This document shows positions 21,804 through 59,376 of a stretch of 64,000 nt of DNA, piece by piece. Both the position numbers and the translations under genes were made by a program. The stretch comes from Natronorubrum tibetense GA33 (lineage in GTDB: Archaea; Halobacteriota; Halobacteria; Halobacteriales; Natrialbaceae): contig NZ_KB913021.1 of the NCBI RefSeq assembly GCF_000383975.1, positions 1 to 64,000 of the forward strand, written 5' to 3'. The notes beneath the pieces were generated by a model. It did not search any database and was not told where the DNA came from. It saw nothing but the letters and a program-made list of their open reading frames with translations. Position 1 is the first letter of the stretch, and each line of letters begins with the position of its first letter.

Positions 21804-22086
21804 GACACCGTATTTTTGGGGACGTGACCTAAAGCTACCCCCCGTCTCGACGGGGTACCGTGTCGCGTTCGACCGACCGATTCCTGCATCGATACCCATC
21901 GTCCTTTCGCTCGACGGAATGACCTCCGGCGAGAACGGTTGATGCGTCGTCGATTCAAGTGTGGTCATCGTGTCGAAGGGTTGCGTCGCCACGTCACCCG
22001 TTCTGGCGTCTTTCTACCTCCCCAACACAACATTTAAGGAGGAGAGGTGACCGGTGCTGCGAGAGGGCCGCGACGTCCCCGCCCCT

Positions 22087-22098
22087 TGCGTATAAAGG
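22087..22098 (+). promoter_or_regulatory. TATA-like box upstream of tyrS
   Basis: The sequence around 22090 (GCGTATAAAGG) is the clearest archaeal TATA-like element ahead of the TyrRS start at 22161. Transcription would begin near 22115-22120, leaving a leader of about 40-45 bases. A second TTTAAGG motif at about 22034 lies further upstream and could serve the divergent gene instead. Confidence 0.4.
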
Positions 22099-22160
22099 CG
22101 GTGTTCAGGTGCCTGCCGAACGCGAGGTCGAGTGCCGTGGGGATCATTCGTCGAATCGTG

Positions 22161-35870: not shown

Positions 35871-38800
35871 TTACTGGTACACGACCGATTCGAGCGCGGC
35901 GTCGATGTCGATATTGAGATTTGCCTCGATGCGGTCGCCGTCGTCTATGACGGCCTCGATTTCAATAAGGTGGTCGACGGCTTCCTCAAGCCGTTCCTCG
36001 ATACGGCTGCCGACGCGATCGTAACCGAACCGTCGTGTAGTCTCGAGGACGAGGTCGGTGCGGGTCATCGCGCCCCCGTTCGCAAGCAGTACGTAGGAGG
36101 CTTTCGCGAGTTCCGCACGTGGAATCGCGGTGACTTTGCGGCGATCATCGGCGTGTCCGCGGAGCGGAATCTCCGCGGCATCTCGCGGTGGCCAGAGGAA
36201 GGCGTCGTGGATGTGGAGGTGGCCGGCATCGGCGATCGCCTGGGCCTGGTCAGCGAGCCGCTCGCGGAGGTCGGTGTCGAGACGGTCGGCTTCGAGCGCC
36301 TCGGCGACGGTTCGGTAGGCGGTTGTCTCGGTGACGGGGCCGGCATCGGCGACTATCGAGAGGAGTGCACGCTGGACTTCTCGCGGTGGCACGCCGAAGT
36401 CGTCGCCGTTGAGATCGGGGACCGTGGGCGGCTCGTACGTGTCGAATGGGTCACCACCGTCGGACTGTACAGGGTGCGAGTCCGCCTCTTCAGCGGCTGG
36501 GTCGGTGGCGGTGCACTCGCGGTCGCTCGGCGGGTGCACGAGGGTCGTAGCGTCGACCGCCGGCTCGGGATCGCCGTTGCCGTTGACACGTTCGCGGATG
36601 CGGTCACGTTCACGTTCGGGGTCGGTCGCCCAGGTTGGCGCCCAGATACGATGGACGTCCCAGCCGCGGTCCGCAAGCACGAGCTGGCGGAGGCGCTCGC
36701 GATCTCGGGTACTGGCGGCGTGTCGTGCCGCGGCACCGTCGAGTTCGATGCCGAGCGCGTACTGGTGGGGGTCCTCAGGGTCGCGTATCGCCATATCGAG
36801 GACGTACCCCGCGGTTCCGAGGTCGGTGGCGACATCGAATCCGGCATCGCTAAGCGTCTTGTAGACATCGCGAGCAAGCGGCGAGTCGAGCGTATCGTCG
36901 GTTGGCGACGCCCTGCCGGCGGTCGTGGGGACGCTGTCGGCGTCGACCTCGCTCGTGATCGGGGGGTCACCGTCGCTTGCGGTCGGAGACGCGGCGGTGG
37001 GGTCGTGGTCGCGGACGTGCGCAAGGTAGCGTTTGAAGTCCGCGACGCCACGGTGTGTGGCGCCGCTGGCGTCGACGTCTTCGGGATGGAGCGAGGAGAC
37101 GACGGTAACCTGGCGGCGGGCGCGCGTGATAGCGACGTTCAGGCGGCGGTGCCCCCCGCTCCGGTTCAGAGGACCGAAGTTCGCGGTCACGGTCCCCGAT
37201 TCGGTAGGGCCGTAACCGACGCTAAAGACAATGCGGTCGCGTTCGTCGCCCTGAACGACCTCGAGGGTCTTCACGAAGAACCCCTCCTGGACGTCCTCGC
37301 AGTCGACGAATGCGTCGAGCGTAGGGTTCTCGCGGCGGCGGTCGGCGAGCGCGTCGCGGATGGCGCGCTCTTGGGCGCGACTGAACGCAACCACACCGAG
37401 GGTCTCGTCGGGACGCATTTCGGCGTGGCTGGCAACGATGTCGACGACACGCTCGGCCTCGCGCTCGTTCTGTCTGGTGTCGCCGCGGTCGTAGACGCCG
37501 TCGGGGACGTACTCGAACTCGAGGCCTGTGGTCGTATCGTCGGTGGCCGGCGCGGGGAATGTCCGGAGTCGTCCGTCGTAGTAGCGGTCGTTCGAGAACG
37601 AGACGAGCGACGGGGCGGCGCTCCGGTAGTGCCACGTGAGGTACTGCTCGGGGATCACGGCCGCGGCCTCGTCGAGGATGCTCTCGAGGTCAGTGCGGCC
37701 GCCTGTGTCGTCGGCGAGGTCGGTCTCGAAGAACGACGTCGGCGGGAGCTGGTTCGCGTCCCCCGCGACGATCACCTGGTCGGCACGGACGAGTGCGCTC
37801 ACGGCTTTCGCGGGCGGTATCTGGCTGGCCTCATCGAAGATGACGGTGTCGAACTCGATGGCGTCGAGCGCGAGGGAGTCAGCGACGGTACGGGGACTCA
37901 TCATAAAGCACGGCTTGAGTTGCTGGATGATTTCGCCGGCGTCCGCGAAAAGTTCACGGAGCGGTCGCTGGTGGTGGGCCTTCCCGAGTTCGCGCTTCAG
38001 GACGACCTGCGCGGCGCTGTCGGCGTGTTCGAGTTCGATGCTGGGACGACGGCTCGTGACGGCGTGGCGGACGGCCGCGGCGTCATGCTCTCGGAGCGCG
38101 TCGTCGGCCTCTCGGTACGTCTCGAGGTGGTGTGTGTACGTCTCGGCGTTGAACGTGTCGAGGTCCGTCTCGTCGTAGAGGGCGTTCAGCCAGTGGCGGT
38201 AGAACCCACGCTCGAACGCGCTGACGAGGTGGCTAGAGTCGTGGCCGGCCGCGAGGAACTCGTCGAGATAGTCGCCGGCGATAGTGTCGGCGACGCGGTT
38301 GCGGGCGGCTTGGAAGGCTACCCAGTCTTGGAGGCGGTCGAGGTTCTCGCGCAGTGTTTCGAGGACGGTGCGCTGGGCGCTCCACGACGCGGCGGGGAAC
38401 GCGGTACCGTCGGCGTCCAGTTCATCGAGTGCGACGAACGACGCGAGGTCGTCGCGGGCGGCCTGGAAGCGTTCGCGGTGCGTGGCGAGCGCTTCGTGGA
38501 ACTCGTCGATGGTATCGAACGCGTTCGCGTCCAGGCCCCCGCTGGCGGTCGCTGGGTCGACGACGTCGGTGTCGGCAAGTGCACGCACCCAGTCCGAGAC
38601 ACCCTGCACCCGCTGCCAGTCGATGTTCTCCTGCAGGCGCGCACCATCGATGCCGTCCTGCGTGGGCTCGGGGTCCACATCGGTTCCGTCCACAAACGGC
38701 ACGAGGTAGCGCGGGTCGACATCCACCTCGGCGATAGTGTCTTCGAGTGACTGGAGCGCGCGGAGCCGACGGGCGTCCTCACGGAGAGCCGCGAGGTCCG

Positions 38801-42044: not shown

Positions 42045-45041
42045 CTATGGCACGTCAGCGGCGCCAGTCTGGGCAGCGGTGAGGACGTCGATGGCCGTCA
42101 GCCGGGTCGCGGGCGGGACATCGTCGGTCTCCGCGAGGAACCTCTGGGTCTGGCGTCGAATACGCTCCGCGTGCTCGGAGTCCGGCCGTCGTTCGAGGGC
42201 GCGAGCGACGGCTTCGAGTATCTCCCGTCGACCGGGGTCCGTGCTGTCGAGGTACCGACGCAGTCCGTCCTCGAAAGACATCCGAATGATGTCGACATCA
42301 CCAATCGCCTGGCCACTTCCGACCTTGAGCACCGTTTCCAGGAACCACTCGGGATCGAGGACGTCGGTCTCGACCAATCCGGGAAAGAACTGCACAGGCG
42401 TGTACTCCGTCTCTTTGTAGATGGCTTTCCGGAGTTGGCGCCCTATATATGCCGTGAGCGATTCGGTGACGGTCGACCCCAGCATTCGAAGAATCGTCGC
42501 ACGTCGACACTCGCCGGGCGTCTGTAGAAACTCATCGAGTATCATAATCTGCTGAATCAAGCCTTCACCGCTGCCCGGCAGAATCCAACCCGTTGAATCG
42601 AACGGCGTGTCTTCGCCAGGGCTCTCGTCGAGCGCTACCCTGTCAATTATGTCGTTCGCCACCGCCGGCACGTCGGGCGCTTCTGCGAAGACTGCCTCGC
42701 CGACCAGTCGAGTGCGGTAGCGGCGTCTGAGCCCCGTGGTGTCAGCGGCGTGGTCCTCGAGCACAGGTATCGGGTTCCGGTCCTCATCCGTGCAGAGTGT
42801 CGCGACTTCGCCGATTGCAGCGGTGACCGACAGTCGATGCCGCCGTGGCACTGTCTCTACGTGCTCGAGCAATGATTTGCATGAGGCCGGCGCGACCTCT
42901 GGGGCCGCCGCGAGTACCTCGCCAAGTTCCTGTGTCGCCACCCAGCGAGTCGGCCCAGTGGTCGACGGAATGCGCGCTCGGTACTCCCGAAGTAATGCCG
43001 CCGAGGTACTCGCGTTCCGCGCGATTGATTCGCCGAGTACCTGCGCGAGACGGTCCCGCCTGCTGCCTTCCGCCGTTTTGCACGCAACATGGAGTGGCTG
43101 GAGTTGCTCGGGGAGCGGTCGTGGGACGGTCGAGATGGCTTCACCGAGCGCTCCAGTGGCGCGAATCCGAAGCGGCTGTTCGAGGGACTGAACCAGGTCC
43201 ACAAGTCGCGCCACCGCTTCGTCTTCCAACGACGTTAGCGCCCTGATACTGTCCCTGAGTGACCCCAGCGCGTGCCACTGGGGTATCTCGTCGTCCGTAC
43301 TCCTGATAGCCTCGACATAGATGTCGATTGCCGTCGAGGCGGTCTGGGGGTTCGAACCGACGATTTCGCCGAGAATGCGTGTGTTGAACGCGCGCTCGTC
43401 GTTCCCGAGGGACGGGCCGTGGAAGACGTTGTCGACGAACGGCTCGGTGACGTCGTTCACTAGAGAGCGGTCGGCGAGTGCGAGTTCGCCGAGGGCCTGT
43501 TTCGCCCACTCTCGCTCTGTAGGTGTCGCCTCAGGGCTCTGCCAGAAGTCGACGAGTGCTTCGATCGGGTCCGTGGCGCTCTCCGAGATGACTATCGTTG
43601 CGATGGCGAGGGCGTGCAGTAACGGGGCTCGAAAGGTACCGTCCACTGACTCCAACGCCTCCGTGAGCGGGCGTACCGATTTCGGAATGCGGTTCGGTGC
43701 TTCGAGGACGAGTTCTGCGAATCCCTGCGCAGCGTTCTCTTTTGCATCTCCGTCGTAGGTCCGTAGCTCTGACTCGAGTGTCGACAGGACATCATCGCGA
43801 CCGACAGACTCGTTCTCGATGACGCGACCCAACTCCCGGGTGACTGCCAGTCTGGGCGGCGAGTCACTCGAGTCGAACCTCTCCACGAACGTCTGAATAC
43901 TGTCTGAGAAGGACTCGGGGCAGGCGAAAGCGATTACGCCGAGCGCGACACGTGACTGGTTCTGCAGTCGCAAGAGGAACTCTGGGTTTTCTGCCTGCTC
44001 CTTCAGGACCGGGCAGATCGCGGCCATCGAGTCTGCGTCTGCAAGGCGGTACTCGCCTACGGCGAGGGCTGCCGCCGCACGAACCAATCCGTCAACCTCG
44101 CCCATGTACTCGAGAACCGCGTCCGTTGGCGACTCCTCATGCACCCCGATACGCTTGAGGGCGATACCTTCACCGATCGCTCGTGCAGCATCCATCCGAC
44201 GACACCCAGCCGCACTTCGAGTCGCCTCGACGAATTGTTCGAACGACCCACCAGAATGGTGTTCGCCGACGGTGTCTGGCTGCTTGGTACGTATCGCATC
44301 GTTCGCAATTGCGACGTAAGCTTGCGTTCGGCCGAATTCACTGTTCGCAACCTCGTCGAGTACCGCAGCGACCGGCTCCGGGTCCGTCAGCCGGTCGGCA
44401 TGCTGGCCAAGGAGCACGGCCAGCAAGCGCATCGCATGTCGAAGCGCCGAATTCGACTGATCAACGGCCATCAGTGGCGGACGGACGGCCCGAATGTAGT
44501 CGACAAGCGCTCGACACAGAACGTCGAGGTCGAATCGCAGACTGATGTGGTCCCAGACAACTTCGGGGCACCACTTGGTCAAGTTCGCGAGTACCGCCAC
44601 GCTCAGCCGCGTTGTCTCTGTAGTGAACCCTACAGCGAGGATATTCGCAGCCGGGTGTGCGATCGACACCGCCAATTCGTCGGCCGTCTCGATCTTCCGG
44701 AACAATCTCGGGTCAACGACTTCACGCAGTACCGCAAGCAGCGTCCGCGTTACGTCGAGTGAGAGGCCCCGTACGAGCACCGTCTCCCCTGTCGATGTCG
44801 TCTCGACAAGCCGTTCGACTTCGTCCATCAGTAGGTGTGTGAGGATGGGGGAGAAGTACTGCGCCACCTCCTGGTGCTCTTCCGCGGTGTCCCGCAGCGT
44901 CTTGCAGGCAACGAGTCGCCGCTTGAGCCCGCTCCGAGGGTTGTCAGGGCCGACTGGGGCCCGGAGCTTCGCGGCCAGCTCCTTGGGCGTGTAACCGTCC
45001 AGCGGGTCCGCGTGGGCGCCCACATCGTTCGGCTCCGTCAT
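42045..45041 (-). CDS. Large HEAT-repeat protein (998 aa)
   Basis: 998 aa, starting MTEPNDVGAHADP at 45041. Clear HEAT units include RAAAALAVGEYRLA, RLAVTRELGRVI, RATGALGEAIST, VATQELGEVLA and TAIGEVATLC, spaced about 40-45 residues. It is the closest match in length and layout to the gene interrupted by the IS6 element (997 aa before insertion), including the end PPATRLTAIDVL. Probably a cytoplasmic scaffold; no catalytic residues or membrane segments. It is convergent with nothing and divergent from a stretch of 700 bp that separates it from the next HEAT gene. Confidence 0.87.
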   Translation of the reverse strand: MTEPNDVGAHADPLDGYTPKELAAKLRAPVGPDNPRSGLKRRLVACKTLRDTAEEHQEVAQYFSPILTHLLMDEVERLVETTSTGETVLVRGLSLDVTRTLLAVLREVVDPRLFRKIETADELAVSIAHPAANILAVGFTTETTRLSVAVLANLTKWCPEVVWDHISLRFDLDVLCRALVDYIRAVRPPLMAVDQSNSALRHAMRLLAVLLGQHADRLTDPEPVAAVLDEVANSEFGRTQAYVAIANDAIRTKQPDTVGEHHSGGSFEQFVEATRSAAGCRRMDAARAIGEGIALKRIGVHEESPTDAVLEYMGEVDGLVRAAAALAVGEYRLADADSMAAICPVLKEQAENPEFLLRLQNQSRVALGVIAFACPESFSDSIQTFVERFDSSDSPPRLAVTRELGRVIENESVGRDDVLSTLESELRTYDGDAKENAAQGFAELVLEAPNRIPKSVRPLTEALESVDGTFRAPLLHALAIATIVISESATDPIEALVDFWQSPEATPTEREWAKQALGELALADRSLVNDVTEPFVDNVFHGPSLGNDERAFNTRILGEIVGSNPQTASTAIDIYVEAIRSTDDEIPQWHALGSLRDSIRALTSLEDEAVARLVDLVQSLEQPLRIRATGALGEAISTVPRPLPEQLQPLHVACKTAEGSRRDRLAQVLGESIARNASTSAALLREYRARIPSTTGPTRWVATQELGEVLAAAPEVAPASCKSLLEHVETVPRRHRLSVTAAIGEVATLCTDEDRNPIPVLEDHAADTTGLRRRYRTRLVGEAVFAEAPDVPAVANDIIDRVALDESPGEDTPFDSTGWILPGSGEGLIQQIMILDEFLQTPGECRRATILRMLGSTVTESLTAYIGRQLRKAIYKETEYTPVQFFPGLVETDVLDPEWFLETVLKVGSGQAIGDVDIIRMSFEDGLRRYLDSTDPGRREILEAVARALERRPDSEHAERIRRQTQRFLAETDDVPPATRLTAIDVLTAAQTGAADVP

Positions 45042-45660: not shown

Positions 45661-45752
45661 GCGAGGATTCTAGTGTACCTCCGCGAGATAGCGGGAGAAG
45701 ACGCCACGAGCGTCGTCCAACTGCGGCAATGAGGTGCTTCGACGGCGAGTCG

Positions 45753-48743
45753 ATGAGCGACGTCGCGGGCATCGCGTTCCCGGTCGACGGCGAGATCCTA
45801 ACGCTGGCCGAGACGCTCGACGAGGGTGCCTCCAGGTCGAGTTCGGTCGGTGCGCACCTCGACGCGGTGCGTGCCGCGGAAGCGCTACGGGAACGGGAAG
45901 TGGACGCGCCAACCAGCGTGCGAGCGATCGCGCCGACGCTCGAACGAGCACTCTGGGAGCCCGACGGTGCGAGTGGAGACGCGACCGCGAGCGACCTCTA
46001 CGTGTCGGGGCTACGAGAGCGCCGTCGCGAACTCATCACGGCAACGCTGGCGTCAATCACGGACCCGTCACTGGTCCAGGGCTATGAGGCGAGTTTGTAC
46101 TCGCTGCGGGGACTGGTCGCGGCGGTCGGGCGGACGCTGACCGCGACAAGCGCGGACGTCGTCCGCGAGCACTGTCTCAGGACGCTCGCCGCGCTCGGTC
46201 GGGTACGACCGGATGTCGTGCAAGAGACACTCGACGGCGACGCGGTCGCCATCGGCGTCGACTGGCTCCAGCGCCGCGAGACGCCCGAGCAATGGCAGGA
46301 GACCGTCGTCGCGGAACTGCTCGCGATCACCGCCCCAGCGCTGCCGTCGGTCTGGGACGACGCCTCGATTGCGACTGTGACTAAGCACTTGCTCGCGAGC
46401 GAATCGGCAACGACGCGAGCGCTCGCCCGAGCCGTGAGTCGAACGGCACCTGCAGGATTCGAAGGCGTCCTACCTGATGGTCCCGGGAAACAGCCGTTTG
46501 AGCCGCTCCGGCGGCTCGGTGAAGATTCCTCTCTCGGCGACCGGGAGGGGCGTCGGCTCGCTCGTGCGGTCGGACGATGCGTCGCGCTGGACCCCGACCT
46601 GACCGCAGACGCGCCCGCGGCGCTGGTGGAGCGCGTGCGACAGGCACCCAGAGCGGAGCTGGCACCGGCGGCGACCGCACTCGGCGAGGTCGTCGCAAAC
46701 ACGGTCGCGTCCAACGAGAGAACGGGAGCGGCACTCGTCGAACGGGTGGAAGGCGCCTCGGGTGACGCCCGGCACCGTCGCGTGCGTCTCCTGGGCGAAG
46801 TCGCGGTGGCCTGCCCTGAACGAGTCGACCCGGTCTCGCGGCGGTTCCGCGAGCGGGTCGCCGCGGCGAGTCCGCCCGACGCGGCTGCGGTGCGTGGCGT
46901 TGGCGAGTGCGTCGTCGCTGCGGCCGAAGACGGTCGTCCGCTCGCGGTACTTCGTCGGCAGGTACGGGCGGGGACCGGTCGGGAGCGCGAGCGGGCCGCG
47001 GTCGCGCTCGGCGAGTGGGTCGCACACGTCCCCGACGTCGTCGACGCCGAAGTGGATTCGCAGGCGGCTGTCGTCAGGTCGACGAGCGGCGGCGATCGTG
47101 AGGCGGTCGCGGCAGTCCTCGGCATGTATGTCGTCGCGGTCGCGGCCGGGGGCGTGAAGGCGGGGACGACCGTGGTCGGTTCGGACGCGTCGACCCGGGC
47201 GACTCGGGTGCGCGGCGAACGCGTTCTGGCAGGGGACGTCGACGGGTTCAACCTGACGCGAGAGACCCGGGTCGGTCTCCGCGAGAACCGTGGGGCAACC
47301 AGGCGCTTCGCGACGCAAGCGCTCGGTTTGGCACTTCAGTACCGGGAATCGACGGGGAGCGCGCCCCTCGTGGCGATCCGAGCGGCCGTGACGTCGAGCG
47401 CGCTTGACCAACGCCCGCACCGTCTCAGGCTCCTTGGCGAGTGGGTCGCTGCCACCGGAACGAGCGAGGGCCGGGTCACGGCACTCATCCAGCGCGTTCG
47501 CAAGACGACCAGCACGGGCCGCGAGCAGGCCGCTCGTGCCCTCGGCGTAGCGATGACCGTACGCGCGGGGTTCGGGGCGCGAGACGCCGCCGCGATCGGT
47601 ACCGCCGTCGCCAGGCTGGCGGTCCACGATGAGGTCGTGGGAGCGACGCGTCGTGCGGTCTGGCGGGCGAACCCGGAGGCTGGAGACGCGTCGACGACGC
47701 GCCTGCCGGCAGGGGTGCCGGCGGTCGACCGCGACTGGCCGCTCCGTGCGCTCGGCGAGGGTGCAGCGGTCGCGGGGGATTCGGTTCCGACTGGCTGCGG
47801 GTCGCTCGCTGCGACGGTGGTGGAATCCGATGGCTGGGACAGTCAGAGCGCGGCGAGGGCACTCGGCGCAGCACTCGTCCTGGACGAGTACCCGGCGCCG
47901 GACGTCCTCGCGTGGGTGACAACCGGTTTCGGCGGGACACCGGAAAGCAGAGGCGCGATAACGTACACGCTCGGCGAGGTCGCCGCGGCGCACCCCGAGT
48001 CTTTCCCGGGTGTTCCGGATACGCTTGTGGCAAGCGTCCGCGAGGCATCGGGCACTGTGCGGACGACGACGGCACGCGCGCTCGGCGAGTACGTTAACAT
48101 GCCCGCGCTCGCCGAGCCGTCCTCGGTGAATGCGCTCCAGAACGCAGCGAGTGACGCCAGCGGCGACGCCCGGGCACACTTAACGCGAGCTCTCGGCGAG
48201 GTCCTCGTTGATGTCCCCGACCCAGACATCGAGGCGCCTGCGCTCCTCGTCGACGCCGTCGCAGACGCGACCGGCCAGGACCGGCGAGCGCTCGCACGCC
48301 TCCTCGGCGAACTTGCCGTCGCCGACGACCTGGGAAACGTCCTTGACCGAGTCGTGCCCGCCGAGACCGATGCGTCGGTGTTCGAGCGCGCACGCCGCAG
48401 TCGCATGACCCAGGGACTCACCGCCGTCGATGCAGTTGGCGTCGAGGACCTCCTTGCGGCCCTCTCCGTCGGCGAGACGCACGACGATGCGTTCGTATCG
48501 TCCATCGATGTGGACACGACGCCCGTCGAGACGCTCCTGGAATCACCGCCACCGATACGCGACCCACTCCTCGACGCGCTCATGACCGCACTCGGACGAC
48601 GCGCAACGAGAGCTCCGGGCAACCCCGGCACTCGATTCGACGCCTGGCTGCGCGAATCGACCGACGCAGAAGCGCCCGCTCGACTCCACGCGGTGGCCGC
48701 ACGCAGCGCGGTCGACACGACCGCGGCAAACATGGACCGCTAA
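45753..48743 (+). CDS. Large HEAT-repeat protein (about 996 aa)
   Basis: 996 aa from the ATG at 45753 (MSDVAGIAFPVDG); an ATG at 45729 would add eight residues. The repeat motif is very clear: ATALGEVVA, VRLLGEVAVA, RGVGECVVAA, AVALGEWVAHVP, LRLLGEWVAA, ARALGVAMTV, TYTLGEVAAA, TRALGEYVN and TRALGEVLVDVP, each about 40-45 residues apart. Many repeats contain basic residues before the LGE core. No catalytic motif. The regularity of the LGE units makes this the type example of the HEAT family in the window. Confidence 0.88.
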   Translation: MSDVAGIAFPVDGEILTLAETLDEGASRSSSVGAHLDAVRAAEALREREVDAPTSVRAIAPTLERALWEPDGASGDATASDLYVSGLRERRRELITATLASITDPSLVQGYEASLYSLRGLVAAVGRTLTATSADVVREHCLRTLAALGRVRPDVVQETLDGDAVAIGVDWLQRRETPEQWQETVVAELLAITAPALPSVWDDASIATVTKHLLASESATTRALARAVSRTAPAGFEGVLPDGPGKQPFEPLRRLGEDSSLGDREGRRLARAVGRCVALDPDLTADAPAALVERVRQAPRAELAPAATALGEVVANTVASNERTGAALVERVEGASGDARHRRVRLLGEVAVACPERVDPVSRRFRERVAAASPPDAAAVRGVGECVVAAAEDGRPLAVLRRQVRAGTGRERERAAVALGEWVAHVPDVVDAEVDSQAAVVRSTSGGDREAVAAVLGMYVVAVAAGGVKAGTTVVGSDASTRATRVRGERVLAGDVDGFNLTRETRVGLRENRGATRRFATQALGLALQYRESTGSAPLVAIRAAVTSSALDQRPHRLRLLGEWVAATGTSEGRVTALIQRVRKTTSTGREQAARALGVAMTVRAGFGARDAAAIGTAVARLAVHDEVVGATRRAVWRANPEAGDASTTRLPAGVPAVDRDWPLRALGEGAAVAGDSVPTGCGSLAATVVESDGWDSQSAARALGAALVLDEYPAPDVLAWVTTGFGGTPESRGAITYTLGEVAAAHPESFPGVPDTLVASVREASGTVRTTTARALGEYVNMPALAEPSSVNALQNAASDASGDARAHLTRALGEVLVDVPDPDIEAPALLVDAVADATGQDRRALARLLGELAVADDLGNVLDRVVPAETDASVFERARRSRMTQGLTAVDAVGVEDLLAALSVGETHDDAFVSSIDVDTTPVETLLESPPPIRDPLLDALMTALGRRATRAPGNPGTRFDAWLRESTDAEAPARLHAVAARSAVDTTAANMDR

Positions 48744-50810: not shown

Positions 50811-53048
50811 GTGTCCAGCCACACAAATTTTCCCGTGAGCCCCGAGGCGGCTCATGAGGTAGTTCGAGCGAAGCTAGACGACTCGGAGCCACCCCGGCCG
50901 GACGACCCGCGGCTCGCCGCCTGCGCGTGTCTTCGGAGCGGGGACCCCGAATACCGGGCCGACGGTGCGGCATTGCTGGCCGCAGTCGCCGACGAAAATG
51001 CGCGAGCCGTCCAGCCAACGCTCTACGACCTCGCGGCCGTACTCGACGCGCCAGACCGACGGACGCGAGTCCATGCGATGGCCGCGTTCCAGGTCGCCGC
51101 CAGCGCGATCCCGGACACCGCAGTCGACCTGCTCGATGCCGTCGTCCCGAGGCTCACGGATGTTGATCCGCTCGTCCGGGAGGCCGCCGCGTCCACCGTC
51201 GCCTGGCTCGCCGAAGCAGTCAGGGACGACACCCGTGGCGATTTTCCCGACGGGACGAGAGCAACATTCCAGCCCGCAGTCGGTGCGCTTCTTGCGGTCC
51301 TCGTAGCCGATACTGGCGACGAGCGCTTCGAGTGGACGGCAGCGTTCGCCGTGACGCACCCGACGCGGACGTTCTGGGGAGCCGTCGACGCGGGTGCGTC
51401 CCGCCGCTCCGCGTGTCATTGGCAGGCCACCTTCGCAGTGGCGATGCTTGCGGACTGGTTCCCCGAGCAGGTCGCGACACACGACACCCAGCTCGCCACC
51501 CTCGCCGAGTCTGGCGCGCGAGCGGAGACCCGATGGTACGCTATCGACGCCCTTGCTCGCGCCGGCGCCGACGACACGCTCCGTACGGTCCGCGACCGCG
51601 CCCTCGCCGCCCTCGAAAAGCCCGACAGAGCGGCGTCGAGCGTCGAAACGCTCTACCACCTGACGACCGAGCGACCGGCGCTCTTGGTCCCCGCTGCACC
51701 CTCCCTCGCGAACGTGCTAGACGACCTCGACCCAGAACCGACAACGCTCGCCGTCGTCACGATACTACACGCCGCCGTCCACGACCCCGACCCCGTCGCG
51801 GTCGACACCCTCGTTCGCGAGTGGCTGCGGACGGCGGACGAAGACGACTCGCGGACGAAGCGCGTGAATGTCGACTTAGTCGCCTCGGTCGCCACGGCTC
51901 ACCCCGAACAAGTGCTCCCCGCAGTCGGCCACGCGCTCGACATCCCGATCGCGGACCACGCTCTGGCGGCCGACGCCGAGCGCCCGACGCAATCCACTCA
52001 GTCCGGCGAGGGTTGGGACACAGATAGGGCGTGGCGAGTCCTCCTCGAAATCGCGTCTCGCGACCGCGAACTGGTGTGGGAGGTCGTCAAGGAGGACCGG
52101 CTGCTGGCGCGACTCGACCAGCAGGCCGATCGCGGTGCTCGCATCCGCAAACTGTATGCCACCACTGTCCCGACGCCACCGCCCGAATCCGTGATCGAGG
52201 ACCTATTCAAGCTCCTTATCGCAGACACGACGGGTGCGTACGCCGCGCTGTCGACTCTGCAGGACCGGGCACCAGATACAGTCCTGACCGCGGCAGTTGA
52301 CGCCGTCGACGGCGCGTCCGCGCCGGTCGCGGACGTCCTCTCCGTGCTCGTCGCCCTCAGCGACGACGACCCAGCCGCCCTCGAACCGCTTCAGGAGACG
52401 CTCTGGTCGTGGAACAACACCATCCGGCCCGGCGACGACCGCTGGAGCGACCTCGTGACGATCCTCGGTCGGATTGCCGTCGCGACCGACGACCGCGAGC
52501 GCCTCTCCCGGATGCTCCACCTCGAGCACGCCGTCTACTGCAAGCGATTCCTTCGGACCGCGGTCGCGCCAATGGTGATCCAGACGGCGCCCAACAAGGC
52601 CGTGCCAGCGCTTCTGGAGCACCTCGAACACCGGGATGCGTCGCTTCGAAAGCAGGTCGTTCGCCTGTACGAGACGCGTCCAGATGGCTACGGCGGTTGG
52701 GCACCGACCATCCAAGGCGCTGTGCTCGCCAGAATGACCGACTCTGACCCAGGTGTTCGGTCCGCAACCGTCAAGACCCTCGGGACGTGGCTCGAATACG
52801 TCACTGAGACGTCCGGTGATGCACGCGACGGCTGGGTATCGCCGGTGCGGTCGGCACTGTTCGATGGGCTCGACGATGAGGACTGGCGCGTTCGAGCACA
52901 CGCCGCTCGCGCCCTCGGTGCGGACATGGACGCCGAGACCCAAGCAACCTTCGAGACGCGTCTGGCGCAAGAAGGCAACCAGACGGTCCGGTTCGAGATA
53001 CAGCGCGTTCTGTCCCGACACTCCCGAGAGGCGCGGACCGATCGGTGA
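50811..53048 (+). CDS. HEAT-repeat protein (745 aa)
   Basis: 745 aa from a GTG at 50811. Repeats typical of PBS-lyase/HEAT proteins are visible: RADGAALLAAVADE, TRVHAMAAFQVAASAIP, VREAAASTVAWLAEAV and, near the end, RVRAHAARALGADM and VRSATVKTLGTWLEY. No catalytic or membrane features. It ends 18 bp before the end of the convergent ADP-ribosylglycohydrolase gene. No second start was needed, as the upstream sequence has no better ATG. Confidence 0.85.
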   Translation: MSSHTNFPVSPEAAHEVVRAKLDDSEPPRPDDPRLAACACLRSGDPEYRADGAALLAAVADENARAVQPTLYDLAAVLDAPDRRTRVHAMAAFQVAASAIPDTAVDLLDAVVPRLTDVDPLVREAAASTVAWLAEAVRDDTRGDFPDGTRATFQPAVGALLAVLVADTGDERFEWTAAFAVTHPTRTFWGAVDAGASRRSACHWQATFAVAMLADWFPEQVATHDTQLATLAESGARAETRWYAIDALARAGADDTLRTVRDRALAALEKPDRAASSVETLYHLTTERPALLVPAAPSLANVLDDLDPEPTTLAVVTILHAAVHDPDPVAVDTLVREWLRTADEDDSRTKRVNVDLVASVATAHPEQVLPAVGHALDIPIADHALAADAERPTQSTQSGEGWDTDRAWRVLLEIASRDRELVWEVVKEDRLLARLDQQADRGARIRKLYATTVPTPPPESVIEDLFKLLIADTTGAYAALSTLQDRAPDTVLTAAVDAVDGASAPVADVLSVLVALSDDDPAALEPLQETLWSWNNTIRPGDDRWSDLVTILGRIAVATDDRERLSRMLHLEHAVYCKRFLRTAVAPMVIQTAPNKAVPALLEHLEHRDASLRKQVVRLYETRPDGYGGWAPTIQGAVLARMTDSDPGVRSATVKTLGTWLEYVTETSGDARDGWVSPVRSALFDGLDDEDWRVRAHAARALGADMDAETQATFETRLAQEGNQTVRFEIQRVLSRHSREARTDR

Positions 53049-53066
53049 AGCGGCGTGACCGAGACC

Positions 53067-53972
53067 TCAGGCCAGTTCGAGGAGGTCTTCGGCGATCGAC
53101 TCGAGTTCGGAGCGTTCGTCGATGGTCGCGAGCCACCGCTCGGGGAGGACGCTGGCGCCAAAGCGAGCACCGGCGACGGCGCCGGCGATGGCACCGATGG
53201 TGTCAGCGTCGCCGCCGCGGTTGACCGCGGTGACGACGGCGTCCTCCGCACTCTCAGCGGTGAGCGCGTCGTGGAGCGCCGTCTGGAGCGAATGTACGAC
53301 ATAGCCCGACGTCTCGAACTGACTGGGCGTCTCGCCGTCCACGAGTGGCTCCAGAGCCGGGACGAGGTCGTCGGGTACGTCCTCGACGAACGCGAGTGCG
53401 TCTCGGAGTGGTGCATTCCTATCCTCGAGGAGTCCGGCGATGGTAAGGTTCAGTATCGCGCAGCCGTCCCTGCACCGTGGGTCGGCGTGCGTGATGGTCG
53501 AAGACTGCCGACTGACCGTGACCAACCGGTCTCTATTGCCCGCGTACGGGATTGCGAGCGGCGCGCACCGCATGATGCTCCCGTTCCCAGCGTTCTGCCC
53601 CTCGGGGCTTCGCTCCCAGACCCGCTTACCGGCCTCGTCCCACGACGCTCCCTGCTGGATCTGGTGGAGCGAGCGCGCGGTCATCCGCCCGATGTCGAAC
53701 GGGTCGGACTCGTACCACTCCACGAACCGCGCGGCGACGTCCGCTGGATCGAACCCGTCCTCTTCGACGACGCTCCGCGCGATACACAGTGCTTGCGCGG
53801 TGTCGTCCGTGAGCGTCCCTGCCGGCTGATTCCACGTCCCGTGCCCGACCATCTCCTCGAGACGACCGTACTCCGCGCTGAGTGCCTCCGGGGACGAGAA
53901 TTCGACCGGTCGTCCGAGGGCGTCGCCACAGGCCAGTCCGAGAAGCACGCCTCGTGCGTCGTCGCTCTGCAT
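53067..53972 (-). CDS. ADP-ribosylglycohydrolase
   Basis: 301 aa. This family removes ADP-ribose from proteins or nucleic acids using two Mg ions. Motifs in order: GLACGDALGRPVE near residue 12, TLTDDTAQA near 53 (metal-binding Asp-Asp), GNGSIMRCAPLAI near 125, and NRGGDADTIGAIAGAVAGAR near 250 (second metal pair). The gene is complete and of normal length. It is downstream of the lanthipeptide synthetase in the same direction with a 128-bp gap, so it may or may not be part of that cluster. It could instead counter a toxin that ADP-ribosylates, but no such transferase is seen in the window. Confidence 0.93.
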   Translation of the reverse strand: MQSDDARGVLLGLACGDALGRPVEFSSPEALSAEYGRLEEMVGHGTWNQPAGTLTDDTAQALCIARSVVEEDGFDPADVAARFVEWYESDPFDIGRMTARSLHQIQQGASWDEAGKRVWERSPEGQNAGNGSIMRCAPLAIPYAGNRDRLVTVSRQSSTITHADPRCRDGCAILNLTIAGLLEDRNAPLRDALAFVEDVPDDLVPALEPLVDGETPSQFETSGYVVHSLQTALHDALTAESAEDAVVTAVNRGGDADTIGAIAGAVAGARFGASVLPERWLATIDERSELESIAEDLLELA

Positions 53973-54100
53973 AGGCCCACCGACGCTGAGGAGCCTGAAA
54001 TGACTCGGGTGCGACTACAACGGTTGTAAATCGTCTCAGGGTCGGAGACCACTCGCGACAACGTCGGTCGCGTTGGCCACGAGTCTGGCACGGTGGCCGG

Positions 54101-57100
54101 TCAGGCGGGCTCGCATTGGAGAACGTTCGGGACGACAGTCGGGTTCGCGGTGTACAAGAGCGCGAACCCGATACCGGAGAGTCCCTGGAAGAGCGTCGGG
54201 TTCGGTACGCGGCTAGTGTGCGCCGCCAAGGCAGCGGAACCGGCTACGCATTGAAGGTCGTGTTCCGAACCGAGCCGACTCCGAGCGTGGTCGCACAGCC
54301 GGTCGTCGTCCAACTCTGCGCCGGCCGCGGCCAGCGCGACGGCACGCCCAGCGTTACCACAGCAGAGCCCATCCACCCCCCGACCGTGCTCGCCAATTCG
54401 GTTGGCAACCGTCGCAACGTCGGCATGCACGGGAACGGGCGTGTTCCCGAGGGCGAGGCGAGCCAGGACGCCGCCGGTGCGGCCGTGGCACCACGCGTCG
54501 GCGAACGCTGGGCCGTGTTCCCGGCGGTCCGGCCAGTTCGCGCGCTGGTTGCTGTATGATTGCTGTTCGAACTGGAGCGCTTGTGTGGCGCACTCGCGGT
54601 ACAGCGGGTCGCCGGTGACAGCCGTTAGACGGCCCAGGGCGTGCGCGATGCCAGCGGCGCCGTGGGCGTACCCGGTGAGGTGCTCGTCGGTCGGTCCCGT
54701 CGGCCACGCAGCACCGCCGCTGTCGGCGATTGCGGCGCCAACGAGCGCGTCACCAGCTTCACGGGCCACCGTGAGGGCACTCGACGTCGGCCGATGCTCG
54801 TGGAGTACCAGGCACCCCAGGACGACACCTGCAGCACCACGCATCACGTCGTACGGGCCTCCCTCAGAGATGCGGTCGGGTTCGAAGGTATCGACCAGAT
54901 CCTCCGCAGCGGCGAGACATTCGGATGCATTGAGGACCGTACCGACGACAGATAGCCCGTAGATCGCGCCCCCGAGGCCATCCAGGCCGAGGCCGTCCAC
55001 CGCTTCGGCACCGTTCGTCCGGATAGCGTCTCGAAGCGGACCGGTCAGTTCGAGTGCCGTCTCGCGGGCGTCGTCGCGGTGGAGTTGGTCGGCCACGACT
55101 GCAGCGAACACTGCGACGCCCAGTTGCCCCTCGTACAGCCCGTCTCCAGCCGTTCCGACCTGCAGCCGGCCCGCGTCCGTCTCACGCCGGACGACCCACT
55201 CACCGGCGTCGTTGTCGTGAGCAACGGTCGCATCGACTACGCAGTCGTAGACCCGGCCGGCTGCGTCCATGAGGTCGTTCACGGCAATGTCAGGACTGCT
55301 CGCGGCGTGCGATGGTGTCGACATGGCGGCCTCTTCCGAGGCAGACGGGTTGAGTGCCATCTCGATGACGTCGCATTGCTTGCGGATGGTGTCCGCGTTC
55401 AGACTGGTGAAGCGTTCTTTCACTCGGCGGTATCCGGCGCTCTCGGTGATGCCATCGATAGTGGCGTCGCCGCAGTGGAGGGTTCCACTGTTCGCATCGG
55501 CGGTGAGTCTGGGTACGTCGAGTCGAAGGAGCGCGCGCCGTTCGGCGTTGACGACGTCCCATGCAGGATCGTCCGCATCGGCGAGCATTGCCTCTGATAC
55601 GAGGACGTCTGTGGTGAACGTCAGTCGCCGCCCATCCTGCAGCGTCTCCGGCGACTGCAGCGCCGATAGGATTCCATCGTACTCCTGAGTGTTCCGGAAC
55701 AAGACCCGCGTCTGGAGCGTCGAGAACCTGCTTGGGAGCGACAGGCGGTCCTCGACGACGGCGCGACAAACGGCAGCAAACGTCTCGCTGATTTCGTCTG
55801 CGTACCCCGCTGCTGCGACTGGCGAGTCCGGTGACTCCTCGACAGACGGGACGTTCCGCGGCGGTGGCGACATGAGTTCAGCGTCTCGCTCCCGCCGGCG
55901 CATCGCGTTCGTGTTGACGTTGGACCACGCCGTCTCAACGGGCCCGGACCCGATCGGGATCTCCGGCTCGCCGAAGCCGTTGACCATCGCAGTCTCGGGG
56001 ATCGTCCCCGAGGCGTAGCTCTGCGGAAGCAAACCAGTCCAGAGGACGCTCCCTGCCCCCGTCGCGGTGTCGGTCGGCGCCGCTTCATCCGTACTCGGCG
56101 AGACGGCCGGAGTCAGCAGCGTCTCCGCGTCGACGACGACTGGCGACCGCCCGTTCGCGACGACGTTCTCGTAGTGACAGTCGTTCAAATACAGCAGGTA
56201 CGCACTCGCGAGCACCACGCCCGCACGACGATAATACGCGTCCATCGCGTCAGTACTGGAACAAGGTTCAGCGGCGACGTGCTCCACCCACCCGTACGCT
56301 TCGCGCGCCAACACGTCTACCGAGCGGGTTTCGACGCCGACTGCGTCGCCTGCTCGCTTGAGGAAGTTGTCGAACGCAGCCTCCGTGCGGACGCTCCGGG
56401 GTTTGTAGACGACTCGCGTGTCGTCGTCGAAGGTGAGGAGAACGACGCGGCGGCCGTCGGCGTGCCTGTCTGAGTCGAGTATCGAGGCCTCGGTCAGCGC
56501 CACCGCTTCGTAGTCGAAGTTGAACGTGTCTCCGAGTGACTGCCAGTCGGCGTCGAGTCGGCGGTCGAACTCGCGGACTGCATCGCACCACTGAGTGACG
56601 ATTCTGGCGAGGAACCGCGGAAGCACTGGGTATTCGGCGAATAGTTCGGCGAGCCCGTTCTCGGTACGGAGGCCGGCGATAAACTCGTCGTAGAGGTCCG
56701 TCTCTGCTGGCGTCGCGGGATCGGGGAACGCACTGGGGCGGTTCACGGCGATGTACGTCCGGAACTCGACGTACAGGACGTCACTACACAGGCGCACGAG
56801 GTCCTGGCGCAACGCCCCCTGCAGCGATGTAACGACCGAGGAGGGTACCCGCTCCAGACCCGCCTCGAGGACACGATCGCGAGCGAACGCGACAATAGGT
56901 GCGAGCACGTCCGCGAACGGAATTTCCTCCGGCGGCTTTCCCAGTGCTGGCCGAGCGTCGGCGTGGGTGTCGGTAATGGACGCGGCGACATCCTGCGCGG
57001 TCGTGACCCAGTCCGGGAGCGCGACGTCGTCTGGGAACGCGTCGACGTCCGCTATCGCCGCAAGGGCGAATTCGTCCATATCGCTGCGCGCGACTCGTTG

Positions 57101-57286
57101 GACGACATCGTCCTCAGTCCAGCCCGGAGTGGTCGCAGCCCAGTCACCGACGAGGTTAGTGTCCGTCCAAGACTCCGTCCTCGACAGCCCTCGTTGCTGG
57201 GAAGCGACCGCCGTCGTGCGTTCCTCGATAGTGCTGGCTTGCCACGCGATACGCCGCCACAGAGATGCCGTGAAGAGTGCTGTCAT
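54101..57286 (-). CDS. lanM: Class II lanthipeptide synthetase (LanM)
   Basis: 1061 aa from the ATG at 57286 (MTALFTASLWRRI); an in-frame extension upstream overlaps the precursor gene and is rejected. It dehydrates Ser/Thr in a precursor peptide and then cyclises them onto Cys. The N-terminal DUF4135 dehydratase part carries YKPRS near 294-298, DCHYENV at 369-375 and VDAETL at 385-390, all matching the kinase-like active site. The C-terminal LanC-like cyclase has GYAHGAAGIAHAL near 872, WCHG at 932-935 and CCG at 975-977. The CCG in place of the usual CHG indicates a three-Cys zinc site, as in ProcM-type enzymes. The precursor gene is 80 bp upstream. No transporter or leader protease is nearby. 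Confidence 0.94.
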   Translation of the reverse strand: MTALFTASLWRRIAWQASTIEERTTAVASQQRGLSRTESWTDTNLVGDWAATTPGWTEDDVVQRVARSDMDEFALAAIADVDAFPDDVALPDWVTTAQDVAASITDTHADARPALGKPPEEIPFADVLAPIVAFARDRVLEAGLERVPSSVVTSLQGALRQDLVRLCSDVLYVEFRTYIAVNRPSAFPDPATPAETDLYDEFIAGLRTENGLAELFAEYPVLPRFLARIVTQWCDAVREFDRRLDADWQSLGDTFNFDYEAVALTEASILDSDRHADGRRVVLLTFDDDTRVVYKPRSVRTEAAFDNFLKRAGDAVGVETRSVDVLAREAYGWVEHVAAEPCSSTDAMDAYYRRAGVVLASAYLLYLNDCHYENVVANGRSPVVVDAETLLTPAVSPSTDEAAPTDTATGAGSVLWTGLLPQSYASGTIPETAMVNGFGEPEIPIGSGPVETAWSNVNTNAMRRRERDAELMSPPPRNVPSVEESPDSPVAAAGYADEISETFAAVCRAVVEDRLSLPSRFSTLQTRVLFRNTQEYDGILSALQSPETLQDGRRLTFTTDVLVSEAMLADADDPAWDVVNAERRALLRLDVPRLTADANSGTLHCGDATIDGITESAGYRRVKERFTSLNADTIRKQCDVIEMALNPSASEEAAMSTPSHAASSPDIAVNDLMDAAGRVYDCVVDATVAHDNDAGEWVVRRETDAGRLQVGTAGDGLYEGQLGVAVFAAVVADQLHRDDARETALELTGPLRDAIRTNGAEAVDGLGLDGLGGAIYGLSVVGTVLNASECLAAAEDLVDTFEPDRISEGGPYDVMRGAAGVVLGCLVLHEHRPTSSALTVAREAGDALVGAAIADSGGAAWPTGPTDEHLTGYAHGAAGIAHALGRLTAVTGDPLYRECATQALQFEQQSYSNQRANWPDRREHGPAFADAWCHGRTGGVLARLALGNTPVPVHADVATVANRIGEHGRGVDGLCCGNAGRAVALAAAGAELDDDRLCDHARSRLGSEHDLQCVAGSAALAAHTSRVPNPTLFQGLSGIGFALLYTANPTVVPNVLQCEPA

Positions 57287-57366
57287 GAATGACTGATTGT
57301 ATGATTGGTGTAGGACTCGGTCGTGCTGGCAGGCCAGCATCCGCAAGAACTCGGAGGTGAATCCTG

Positions 57367-57600
57367 TCAGCAGGAGAGCGTACACTTGCACGTGCAGATG
57401 CACGTGAACGTGTACTTCGCCTCGCTGATCTCGGTCATCACCTCGAGAGCCTCATCGTCGAGTTCCTCGTCGATAATCGCCTGCCGCATCGCCGCCTTGA
57501 ACCCATCGTCGGTCGGGTCCAACTCGAGCGACCCGGGAGTAGCGTCACCGATGGTCTCGCGCGCTTTGTCGTCGGTCGGAGTGGGAATGGTCGAACCCAT
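57367..57600 (-). CDS. lanA: Lanthipeptide precursor peptide
   Basis: 77 aa from the ATG at 57600 (MGSTIPTPTDD); an ATG eight codons upstream (57624) is an alternative. Residues 1-60 form an acidic leader with a helical segment (GFKAAMRQAIIDEELDDEAL). The last 14 residues hold five dehydratable residues (Thr64, Thr66, Thr70, Thr74, Ser76) and five cysteines (67, 69, 71, 73, 77), so up to five (methyl)lanthionine rings are possible. No Gly-Gly cleavage site is seen. Position directly upstream of lanM identifies it as the substrate. The final Cys is the last residue. Confidence 0.88.
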   Translation of the reverse strand: MGSTIPTPTDDKARETIGDATPGSLELDPTDDGFKAAMRQAIIDEELDDEALEVMTEISEAKYTFTCICTCKCTLSC

Positions 57601-57762
57601 ACACCTCCATTTGAACGACTCCATAATAACGGGGCCACGCTGTCTACACCACCTGTAACGTGACGTCCTCGTGCTGTTTTCACTCTTTGTGACGTCACGC
57701 ATCCGAACAACCAGGACAGCTCGAGATATACCGACACCTACGGATGAGTGGTGCTGTGAGTG

Positions 57763-58494
57763 TCACGCGGGCTTCTCAGCCACGAACAGACCGCTCTGGA
57801 GGCACGTGGGATCGAACTCGACGGACTCGAAGCCAGCCGCCGCCAGTCCGTCAATCACCTCGTCCACCGTGAACAGCATCAGCGTGTGCGTGTCGGCGTG
57901 ATGCGTCGCGGTCGCTTCGCCCGTCAGTGCAACCAGATAGTCACTGTTGAGCACTAGATCTCGGTCCTCGACTCTCGATACCTGGACGCTCGTGATAGTG
58001 ACGTCGTCGTCGGTGTACGTCCGGACTTCTCGGTCGACGCCCGCGTCGTCCGGCATCGCCTCCGGGACAAACGGGGCGAGTTCGACGACGAGGATACCAC
58101 CCGAATCGAGCGCATCGTAGCACTCCCTGAGGATGCCGTGCATGTCGTCGACGGACGCCGCGTACGCGAGGGTATGGAAAAGCATCGTGATACAGTCGAA
58201 CGCGTCGGTGAACGGAAGTGCGTGCATGTCTCCACGGAGGACAGTAGCGTCGTCCGTTCGCTCGTTGGCGACCTCGACGACGCCCTCGTTGACGTCGAGC
58301 CCGACGCACTCGAAGTCGGTCTCCATATGACGGAGGTGGGTGCCGACGCCGCAGCCGACATCGAGGACCGATAGCGAGCCCGATCCGATGCGTTCGAGAA
58401 GGACGTCCTCGACGACGCCAGCTTCTCGCGCACCGTCGCGGTCCGCACGGTCCAGTTGCTCGTAGTAGACCGCCAGTTCGTTGTACACGGACAT
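57763..58494 (-). CDS. SAM-dependent methyltransferase
   Basis: 243 aa from the ATG at 58494 (MSVYNELAVYYEQLD); an ATG three codons upstream (58503) is also possible. The class I fold is shown by LDVGCGVGTHL (motif I), CVGLDVNEGV (motif II), LRGDMHALPF (motif III region) and FDCITMLFHTL. This resembles Methyltransf_25-type enzymes. It lies 160 bp upstream of the lanthipeptide precursor in the same direction and may be a tailoring enzyme that methylates the product, or an unrelated gene. The substrate cannot be told from sequence. Confidence 0.85.
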   Translation of the reverse strand: MSVYNELAVYYEQLDRADRDGAREAGVVEDVLLERIGSGSLSVLDVGCGVGTHLRHMETDFECVGLDVNEGVVEVANERTDDATVLRGDMHALPFTDAFDCITMLFHTLAYAASVDDMHGILRECYDALDSGGILVVELAPFVPEAMPDDAGVDREVRTYTDDDVTITSVQVSRVEDRDLVLNSDYLVALTGEATATHHADTHTLMLFTVDEVIDGLAAAGFESVEFDPTCLQSGLFVAEKPA

Positions 58495-58503
58495 CTCTGG
58501 CAT

Positions 58504-58878
58504 ACCGAGACCCAGAGGCGCGAGCGCAAAGAGGTTGGAAAGCCGTCTCCACGAACTGTAGCCCGCAATCGTCGTCCCCTCCGTGCACTCAAGCGGGGCG
58601 GCCGTGCTCGAGTGCGACGTCACGAACCACGGTAGAGCAAATGACCGACGGACTGGTGAGGTTCGGCAAACACGTGGGACTACCCCCACTGAGGACTGTT
58701 CGGCATCGATATGAGGTCCTCAGTATCGACCCTCCTCACCCTTTTGAAGACAATAGATTGTCACTCACTATACTATTCAGTCGTTGGCGGGGGAAGTCAG
58801 ACCGGCCCCCTATCGATGATCCGTCCTGAAAAGAGATCCTTAGCAAAGTCTGTGTAGTCGCAAGTTGCAGTAGTCTGT
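58504..58878. other. 375-bp intergenic region between divergent genes
   Basis: No gene is seen. The stretch becomes AT-rich around 58730-58780 (for example CACTATACTATTC), which could hold promoter elements for the zinc-ribbon gene downstream and, in the other direction, for the methyltransferase/lanthipeptide genes. No clear inverted repeats. Confidence 0.4.
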
Positions 58879-59376
58879 ATGCCCTACTGCACGAATTGTG
58901 GAGGCCAAGTCAAAGACATTCATCACTACTGCGGGGCATGTGGTCAGACGCTTTCTGATATTGCAGAGTCAGAAACCGACCCTCCGATGGCCGTCGATCG
59001 CGAGGGCTTCCTCTCGTTGCGCTCACTCTCGTACGTCAACAACCTACTGAACGGAGAGCAAGATCTGGACAGAGACTCGGTATCTTATACCCAATTGTCG
59101 CGAGAAGTGAGTGCCGCCTTCGCTGATTTTGCTCGTCTGGCGATGATAAAAGACTTAGATTTGCTCCAGCTCTGGGCTGCGGGCTCCAGTTCCGAGGGGT
59201 TGAACACTCCTGTTGAAGACATGAGTAGCAACCAGTTCCGCGACTGGCTGGCCGCTATTGGCCTTTCTCGTACTCTACGGATGTACGACGAATCTCTCCA
59301 CACGGGGTTCGAGGACGACTTCAACGAGCGACTCCAGAAGCTCCTCGAGATTGCCGGGGAGGAACTCGATAGTTAG
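58879..59376 (+). CDS. Zinc-ribbon hypothetical protein
   Basis: 165 aa, starting MPYCTNCGG. Two CxxC pairs (Cys4, Cys7, Cys18, Cys21) form a zinc ribbon at the N-terminus, followed by a helical domain with no known family (LSREVSAAFADFARLAMIKD; DWLAAIGLSRTLRMYDESL). GC content is lower than in the central block. It lies upstream of the replication-type gene in the same direction, but a 200-bp gap with an inverted repeat separates them. Confidence 0.75.
   Translation: MPYCTNCGGQVKDIHHYCGACGQTLSDIAESETDPPMAVDREGFLSLRSLSYVNNLLNGEQDLDRDSVSYTQLSREVSAAFADFARLAMIKDLDLLQLWAAGSSSEGLNTPVEDMSSNQFRDWLAAIGLSRTLRMYDESLHTGFEDDFNERLQKLLEIAGEELDS

What the first reader, a model, noticed from the sequence alone, without database searches (positions are those of the whole stretch)
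53067..58494. Archaeal class II lanthipeptide locus with five-ring potential
The precursor tail holds five Thr/Ser and five Cys in 14 residues, and the synthetase is complete. No transporter or leader protease is adjacent, so export is by an unlinked system or the product acts inside. A methyltransferase and an ADP-ribosylglycohydrolase flank it.
Basis: partly seen in the sequence, partly recalled or inferred. Interest (0 to 1): 0.7.

Follow-up and report, generated by a model that had tools for sequence, protein, structure and literature searches.

The report
Archaeal lanthipeptide with hairpin-encoded core
A salt-loving archaeon carries, probably on a plasmid, the genes for a small sulfur-bridged peptide of a known kind but from a deep unstudied branch, and the DNA that encodes the active end of the peptide also forms an unusually strong, nearly unchanged hairpin that may control the system.

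Summary
On the minus strand lie a methyltransferase, a 77-residue precursor ending TFTCICTCKCTLSC (5 Thr/Ser, 5 Cys), a full-length class II synthetase (LanM, 609 bits) with every expected catalytic residue, and an ADP-ribosylglycohydrolase (ARH). Haloarchaeal class II lanthipeptides are published, some experimentally, so the kind is known. Added here: (1) the order MT-lanA-lanM-ARH-HEAT recurs in one other haloarchaeal family (L002), with 13 of 14 core residues identical although LanM is 65% identical; (2) the two LanMs form a deep, long-stemmed archaeal branch; (3) lanM starts at ATG 57286, not at the GTG inside lanA; (4) at most four rings can form with Thr/Ser before Cys, so five need a reverse ring; (5) the ARH-HEAT pair exists without lanA/lanM in a third genome, so ARH is probably a neighbour; (6) the last 20 codons of lanA are 59/60 nucleotides identical between the loci and fold into a hairpin, the most extreme of 942 windows against synonymous recoding, its one substitution lying in the loop. 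Point 6 suggests a nucleic-acid element inside the core-coding sequence; it rests on two sequences and is unproven. No transporter adjoins; the genome has no C39 leader peptidase.

The parts
57763..58494 (-). SAM-dependent methyltransferase, likely N-methyltransferase; PDB relatives include sugar N,N-dimethyltransferases, cypemycin N-terminal methyltransferase and lanthipeptide methyltransferase LahSB
   Evidence: Methyltransf_25/11; 3bxo 1.7e-19, 7wzg CypM 1.9e-6, 6uak LahSB 7e-7; 64% identical partner in L002
57367..57600 (-). lanA, 77-aa precursor; core TFTCICTCKCTLSC; no double-glycine motif
   Evidence: translation; L002 homologue, 51 of 77 residues identical; no Pfam or NCBIfam match
57367..57429 (-). 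codons 58-77 plus stop of lanA: 63-nt hairpin covering the whole core; inner inverted repeat 57380-57415
   Evidence: MFE -33.3, 0 of 200 dinucleotide shuffles as good (64 nt); 2 of 5000 synonymous recodings as good; top of 942 windows; arms 57380-57396 / 57399-57415, 88% complementary
54101..57286 (-). lanM, class II lanthipeptide synthetase (dehydratase + cyclase); its reading frame is open further upstream to 57451, with a GTG at 57403
   Evidence: TIGR03897 609 bits; active-site columns; start judged from the N-termini of other LanMs and from frame-breaking indels upstream of it
53067..53972 (-). ADP-ribosylglycohydrolase (DraG/ARH fold); probably a neighbour rather than part of the lanthipeptide system
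   Evidence: PF03747 264 bits; DraG structures; ARH-HEAT pair without LanM in G239
50811..53048 (+). HEAT-repeat protein, convergent with ARH; conserved neighbour
   Evidence: HEAT_2; 59% identical in L002, truncated in L088
49526..50008 (+). acidic 160-aa protein, conserved near the same block in L002
   Evidence: 58% identity over 172 aligned positions

Best explanation
This is a class II lanthipeptide locus of a haloarchaeon, probably on a plasmid, from a deep branch seen so far in two genomes. LanM binds the leader of about 63 residues, dehydrates several of the five Thr/Ser of the core and closes thioether rings with the five Cys at its C-C-C zinc site; I expect three to five dehydrations, at most four forward rings, and a fifth only as a reverse ring. 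General host peptidases remove the leader, an unlinked exporter releases the product, and the methyltransferase probably N-methylates the freed N-terminus. The product most likely acts on other haloarchaea or as a self-directed signal, as published archaeal lanthipeptides do. The core-coding segment of lanA also forms a strong, nearly invariant hairpin; I think it most likely acts in the mRNA, holding lanA transcript or translation above that of lanM downstream, so that substrate exceeds enzyme. Shown here: gene content, conservation, hairpin potential and codon choice that favours it. Inferred: chemistry, leader removal, export, activity and hairpin function. The confidence given is for the lanthipeptide reading; the hairpin role is rated in the section on the most novel reading.
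For: LanM full length over TIGR03897; conserved dehydratase and zinc positions; adjacent precursor with 5+5 core; same gene order and core in L002; methyltransferase related to CypM and LahSB; published archaeal LanM products with anti-archaeal or motility effects, and product from precursor + LanM alone in H. volcanii. Hairpin; 19 of 19 conserved-residue codons of the core identical against 10.8 expected, background 56-63% in the other four genes.
Against: No product, transcript or mass data. No double-glycine site, transporter or C39 peptidase. Only two sequences carry this precursor, so covariation cannot be tested. Codons 1-57 of lanA are also unusually conserved (25 of 30, expected 17.5), so slow silent change is not confined to the hairpin. 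The L002 hairpin is less extreme in one control (z -2.99) and unremarkable by raw stability. No Rfam family matches.
Confidence: 0.82

Rival explanations
1. The short ORF is a metal-binding peptide (its tail reads C-x-C-x-C-x-C, like metallothionein clusters) and LanM acts on something else.
For: CxCxCxC spacing in the core.
Against: It lies directly upstream of lanM in both genomes, shares its direction, and has as many Thr/Ser as Cys; no other 5+5 tail exists in the window. The metallothionein resemblance is recalled, not tested.
Confidence: 0.06
2. The nucleotide conservation of the lanA end is due to overlap with a translated N-terminus of LanM starting at GTG 57403, not to a hairpin.
For: The LanM frame is open through the end of lanA in both loci and the overlapping residues are alike (V-x-LHVQVYALLL).
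Against: Other LanMs begin near the ATG at 57286; between the lanA stop and that ATG the two loci differ by indels that break the frame. The overlap does not reach codons 58-65, which are also unchanged.
Confidence: 0.12
3. The hairpin is incidental: lanA changes slowly because it is highly expressed or was exchanged between lineages, and Thr/Cys-rich codons pair by accident.
For: Codons 1-57 are also over-conserved (25 of 30); alternating ACG and TGC codons readily make palindromes.
Against: Synonymous recoding with host codon usage reaches the observed stability in 2 of 5000 (window) and 8 of 5000 (L002) trials; the core is the most extreme of 942 windows; of 39 small ORFs near LanMs only these two gave 0 of 400.
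Confidence: 0.4
4. ARH and HEAT genes are functional parts of the lanthipeptide system (for example removal of ADP-ribose from a target, or self-protection).
For: Same order and relative directions in both lanA-bearing loci.
Against: G239 has ARH with a truncated HEAT gene, and no LanM match, core pattern or methyltransferase there; the ARH has no match in the 30 regions of about 14-20 kb around other archaeal LanMs; ARH relatives occur in 79 of 293 genomes.
Confidence: 0.15

Closest known systems
Archaeal class II lanthipeptides: archalans, medlans, larlans, ciblans, pellan, sallans, litlans (PMC10105419, PMC12144867)
   Same: Haloarchaeal LanM next to a short precursor with a Ser/Thr/Cys-rich end; one published cluster gave product without a cluster peptidase
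   Different: LanM about 28-33% identical to the other archaeal LanMs compared, on its own long stem; core unlike those printed in the sections read; denser in Cys; hairpin-coded core
CCG-type LanMs with three Cys zinc ligands (ProcM of prochlorosins; recalled)
   Same: C-C-C zinc ligands (WCHG ... LCCG); third ligand Cys in 31 of 40 LanMs at that column
   Different: One copy of the core pattern in the genome, no Nif11-type leader match, no C39 peptidase
DADC lanthipeptides (larlans, medlan A; PMC12144867)
   Same: Thr/Cys-rich core; reverse rings possible
   Different: Core sequence differs; cleavage inside rings cannot be judged from sequence

Membership tests
Class II lanthipeptide locus (LanM type) | Single LanM enzyme with dehydratase and LanC-like cyclase domains | tested here: met
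   TIGR03897 609 bits, positions 2-932 of 932; PF13575 and PF05147
Class II lanthipeptide locus (LanM type) | Catalytic residues of the dehydratase (CylM D252, H254, K274, D347, H349, N352, D364, E366, R506, T512; list and numbering recalled) | tested here: met
   all present in the window LanM in the alignment of 40 LanMs; aligned to CylM and LicM2
Class II lanthipeptide locus (LanM type) | Three zinc ligands in the cyclase | tested here: met
   C, C and C at the three ligand columns
Class II lanthipeptide locus (LanM type) | Adjacent precursor with leader and Ser/Thr/Cys core | tested here: met
Class II lanthipeptide locus (LanM type) | Thioether (methyl)lanthionine in the product | not testable with these tools
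   needs mass spectrometry
Class II lanthipeptide with LanT export (common, not required) | Double-glycine leader and C39 peptidase-transporter | tested here: not met
   no GG before the core; 0 matches to PF03412 in the genome, control rings in 8 of 14
Archaeal LanM clade | Groups with haloarchaeal LanMs apart from bacterial ones | tested here: met
   32 archaeal rows on one side of a 100/99 branch, 8 bacterial rows on the other; unrooted, few bacterial rows
DADC lanthipeptides | Loss of residues inside thioether rings giving two amino and two carboxy termini | not testable with these tools
   product feature

The most novel reading that the evidence does not exclude
The segment that encodes the lanthipeptide core is dual-purpose: besides the peptide it is a selected hairpin in the lanA-lanM mRNA (or DNA) that sets the ratio of precursor to synthetase, so that the peptide sequence and a regulatory nucleic acid structure constrain each other.
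Probability: 0.35. Interest if true: 0.65.

Novelty: new variant of a known kind. Interest (0 to 1): 0.5.

Why it matters
Archaeal lanthipeptides are among the few chemically defined weapons and signals of archaea. This locus is a separate deep branch whose product would be very densely bridged if fully modified. A core-coding hairpin would be an unusual way to fix the substrate-to-enzyme ratio of a peptide pathway, and it can be tested by silent recoding in Haloferax volcanii.

Tried and rejected
Search for more members: LanM by profile in 391 class genomes (31 over the cut-off), the core DNA pattern in 391 (1, own); precursor in 392 order genomes (1, own); LanM in 10 genus genomes (1, own); LanM in genome contigs (2 loci: L002, and a distant Mycobacterium LanM, L003); LanM in viral contigs (none); the core DNA pattern in viral contigs gave 3 stretches, none of which reads as a lanA-like precursor; precursor and lanA-methyltransferase DNA in plasmids (none). 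'One other locus' means one among these collections; metagenomes could not be scanned.

Are core hairpins general? 39 small ORFs with Cys/Ser/Thr-rich ends near LanMs (many of them chance ORFs): only the window and L002 gave 0 of 400; next were one of three L048 ORFs (2 of 400) and L043 (10 of 400). So not a general feature.

Rows left out: of the LanM places I fetched 30 regions, leaving truncated or fragmentary places aside; L061 (internal stop) did not enter the tree and L066/L067 were dropped as duplicates. Only 8 bacterial rows were used. In one search random recodings ended in TGA for both loci, whereas the L002 gene ends in TAG.

Rfam: no match at E 1 or better over 52900-59000. Literature: the core strings were found in 0 papers; searches for a lantibiotic stem-loop, inverted repeat or terminator gave nothing I judged to the point from the listings, nor did one for hairpin with lanthipeptide precursor (20 papers, 12 listed; listing only). 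Supplementary tables of the archaeal papers could not be read, so this locus may be listed there. That intergenic hairpins after lanA limit readthrough in bacterial lantibiotic operons is recalled, not taken from a call. One search was a faulty script whose output I discarded (redone).
Full report
What is there. On the minus strand, in order of transcription: a methyltransferase (57763-58494), a 77-aa precursor (57367-57600), a class II lanthipeptide synthetase (reading frame 54101-57403), and an ADP-ribosylglycohydrolase (53067-53972); a HEAT-repeat gene (50811-53048, +) converges on the last. The precursor ends TFTCICTCKCTLSC. Of 708 ORFs of 30 aa or more in the window, 4 have at least 3 Cys and 3 Ser/Thr in the last 14 residues and one has 5 and 5. 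The window is the start of a 166-kb contig with a ParA-type gene near its end (216-1127), so it is plausibly a plasmid.

The synthetase. It matches TIGR03897 over the whole profile (609 bits, cut-off 304) and aligns to LicM2 and CylM. In an alignment of 40 LanMs all the dehydratase positions I know from CylM and all three zinc positions are filled (residue list and numbering recalled). The zinc ligands are Cys, Cys, Cys; the third column is Cys in 31 of 40 rows. The GTG at 57403 inside lanA is a possible start, but other LanMs begin near the position of the ATG at 57286, and between the lanA stop and that ATG the second locus differs by frame-breaking indels. I take 54101-57286 as lanM.

A second locus. 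A scan of genome contigs found L002, from a Haloferacaceae MAG, with methyltransferase (64% identical), precursor (66%), LanM (65%), ARH (76%) and HEAT (59%) in the same order and relative directions. An acidic 160-aa protein is shared too (58%). The core differs at one residue (I to V). The core pattern or precursor was not found in any other genome searched: 391 by pattern, 392 by precursor. LanM is over its cut-off in 31 of 391 genomes of the class. In a tree of 40 LanMs (32 archaeal, 8 bacterial), the archaeal rows lie on one side of a 100/99 branch, and the window and L002 form a pair (100/100) on a stem of 1.6 changes per column; its join to the largest archaeal group is not firm (88/93).

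Export, leader and tailoring. The genome has no C39 match and the leader has no double glycine. No transporter adjoins in the window and I saw none among the L002 reading frames (by eye), whereas three annotated plasmid loci of other haloarchaea have ABC transporter genes within about 3 kb of lanM. Published work made trace product from larA plus larM alone in H. volcanii and credited host peptidases (PMC12144867), so the missing genes do not argue against a working cluster. The methyltransferase resembles sugar N,N-dimethyltransferases, the cypemycin N-terminal methyltransferase (1.9e-6 over residues 2-221) and LahSB: N-methylation of the mature N-terminus is a fair guess. It has no match in the 30 regions around other archaeal LanMs.

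The ARH. It is a DraG/ARH-type enzyme. A third genome, G239, has an ARH (78% identical) followed by a truncated HEAT gene in the same arrangement, with no LanM match, no core pattern and no methyltransferase beside it. Relatives of the ARH occur in 79 of 293 genomes. ARH and HEAT are therefore more likely an older neighbouring block; their presence in both lanthipeptide loci (2 of 2) keeps a link possible.

Rings. T74 and S76 have only C77 after them, so at most four rings can have Thr/Ser before Cys; a fifth must be reverse. Reverse rings are known in archaeal lanthipeptides (PMC12144867).

The hairpin. Codons 58-77 of lanA are identical in 59 of 60 nucleotides between the window and L002. 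At positions with the same residue, other genes of the cassette keep the same codon in 400 of 717 (LanM), 91 of 155 (methyltransferase), 147 of 235 (ARH) and 249 of 436 (HEAT) cases. In the core 19 of 19 are kept (10.8 expected, simulated P 3.5e-5; product of per-residue rates 1.7e-5). Against a narrow reading: codons 1-57 keep 25 of 30 (17.5 expected, P 0.002), so lanA as a whole changes slowly at silent sites. The 63 nucleotides of core and stop fold as one long hairpin: -33.3 kcal/mol in the window and -29.3 in L002, each better than all 200 dinucleotide shuffles. The single substitution within the conserved stretch lies in the four-base loop. Recoding the same peptide with host codon usage gives as stable a fold in 2 of 5000 (window) and 8 of 5000 (L002) trials. 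Among 942 windows over five genes in both loci, the window core is the most extreme (z -4.39) and the L002 core sixth (z -2.99). By raw stability alone it is not outstanding: eighth of 1789 windows in the window transcript and about hundredth of 1843 in L002, since GC-rich stretches fold well anyway. Among 39 small ORFs near LanMs only these two reach 0 of 400, so core hairpins are not general. The arms 57380-57396 and 57399-57415 are 88% complementary. No Rfam family matches.

What the hairpin may do. It ends at the lanA stop, about 80 nt before lanM. The likeliest role is to keep lanA message or translation above lanM. A binding site in DNA, or no role at all, are live alternatives. With two sequences and one loop change, covariation cannot decide.

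Placement. Class II lanthipeptides of haloarchaea were described before (PMC10105419: abstract and first part of the results read; PMC12144867: abstract, results and discussion read; PMC9953058: abstract and outline seen). This is a member of that kind from an uncharacterised branch, with an unusual precursor-coding sequence. A search for the core strings in the held library found none; supplements could not be read.

Noticed in passing
35871-40748 (-): 1625-aa DUF4011-helicase-REase_MTES_1575 protein; best PADLOC match is candidate defence PDC-S37 (1154 bits), then Hhe: a probable anti-phage system.
   Followed up: partly
11076-13658, 23321-27349, 42045-45041, 45729-48743, 50811-53048: Several large HEAT-like repeat proteins on one contig; 45729-48743 has no Pfam match but weak likeness to a repeat protein of L002 beside the same block.
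   Followed up: partly
33332-34600 (+): AAA ATPase with matches to IetA defence ATPases (PADLOC 1.2e-33).
   Followed up: no
22047-23204 (+): Class I tRNA synthetase (W/Y type) gene on a plasmid-sized contig.
   Followed up: no
L087 13666-14568 (G000:C5:77666-78568), beyond the window: A second ADP-ribosylglycohydrolase, 50% identical to the one in the locus, on the same contig.
   Followed up: no
L088 13680-14522: In G239 the HEAT gene next to ARH is truncated, with a stop reported inside the match: a decaying copy of the block without the lanthipeptide genes.
   Followed up: partly
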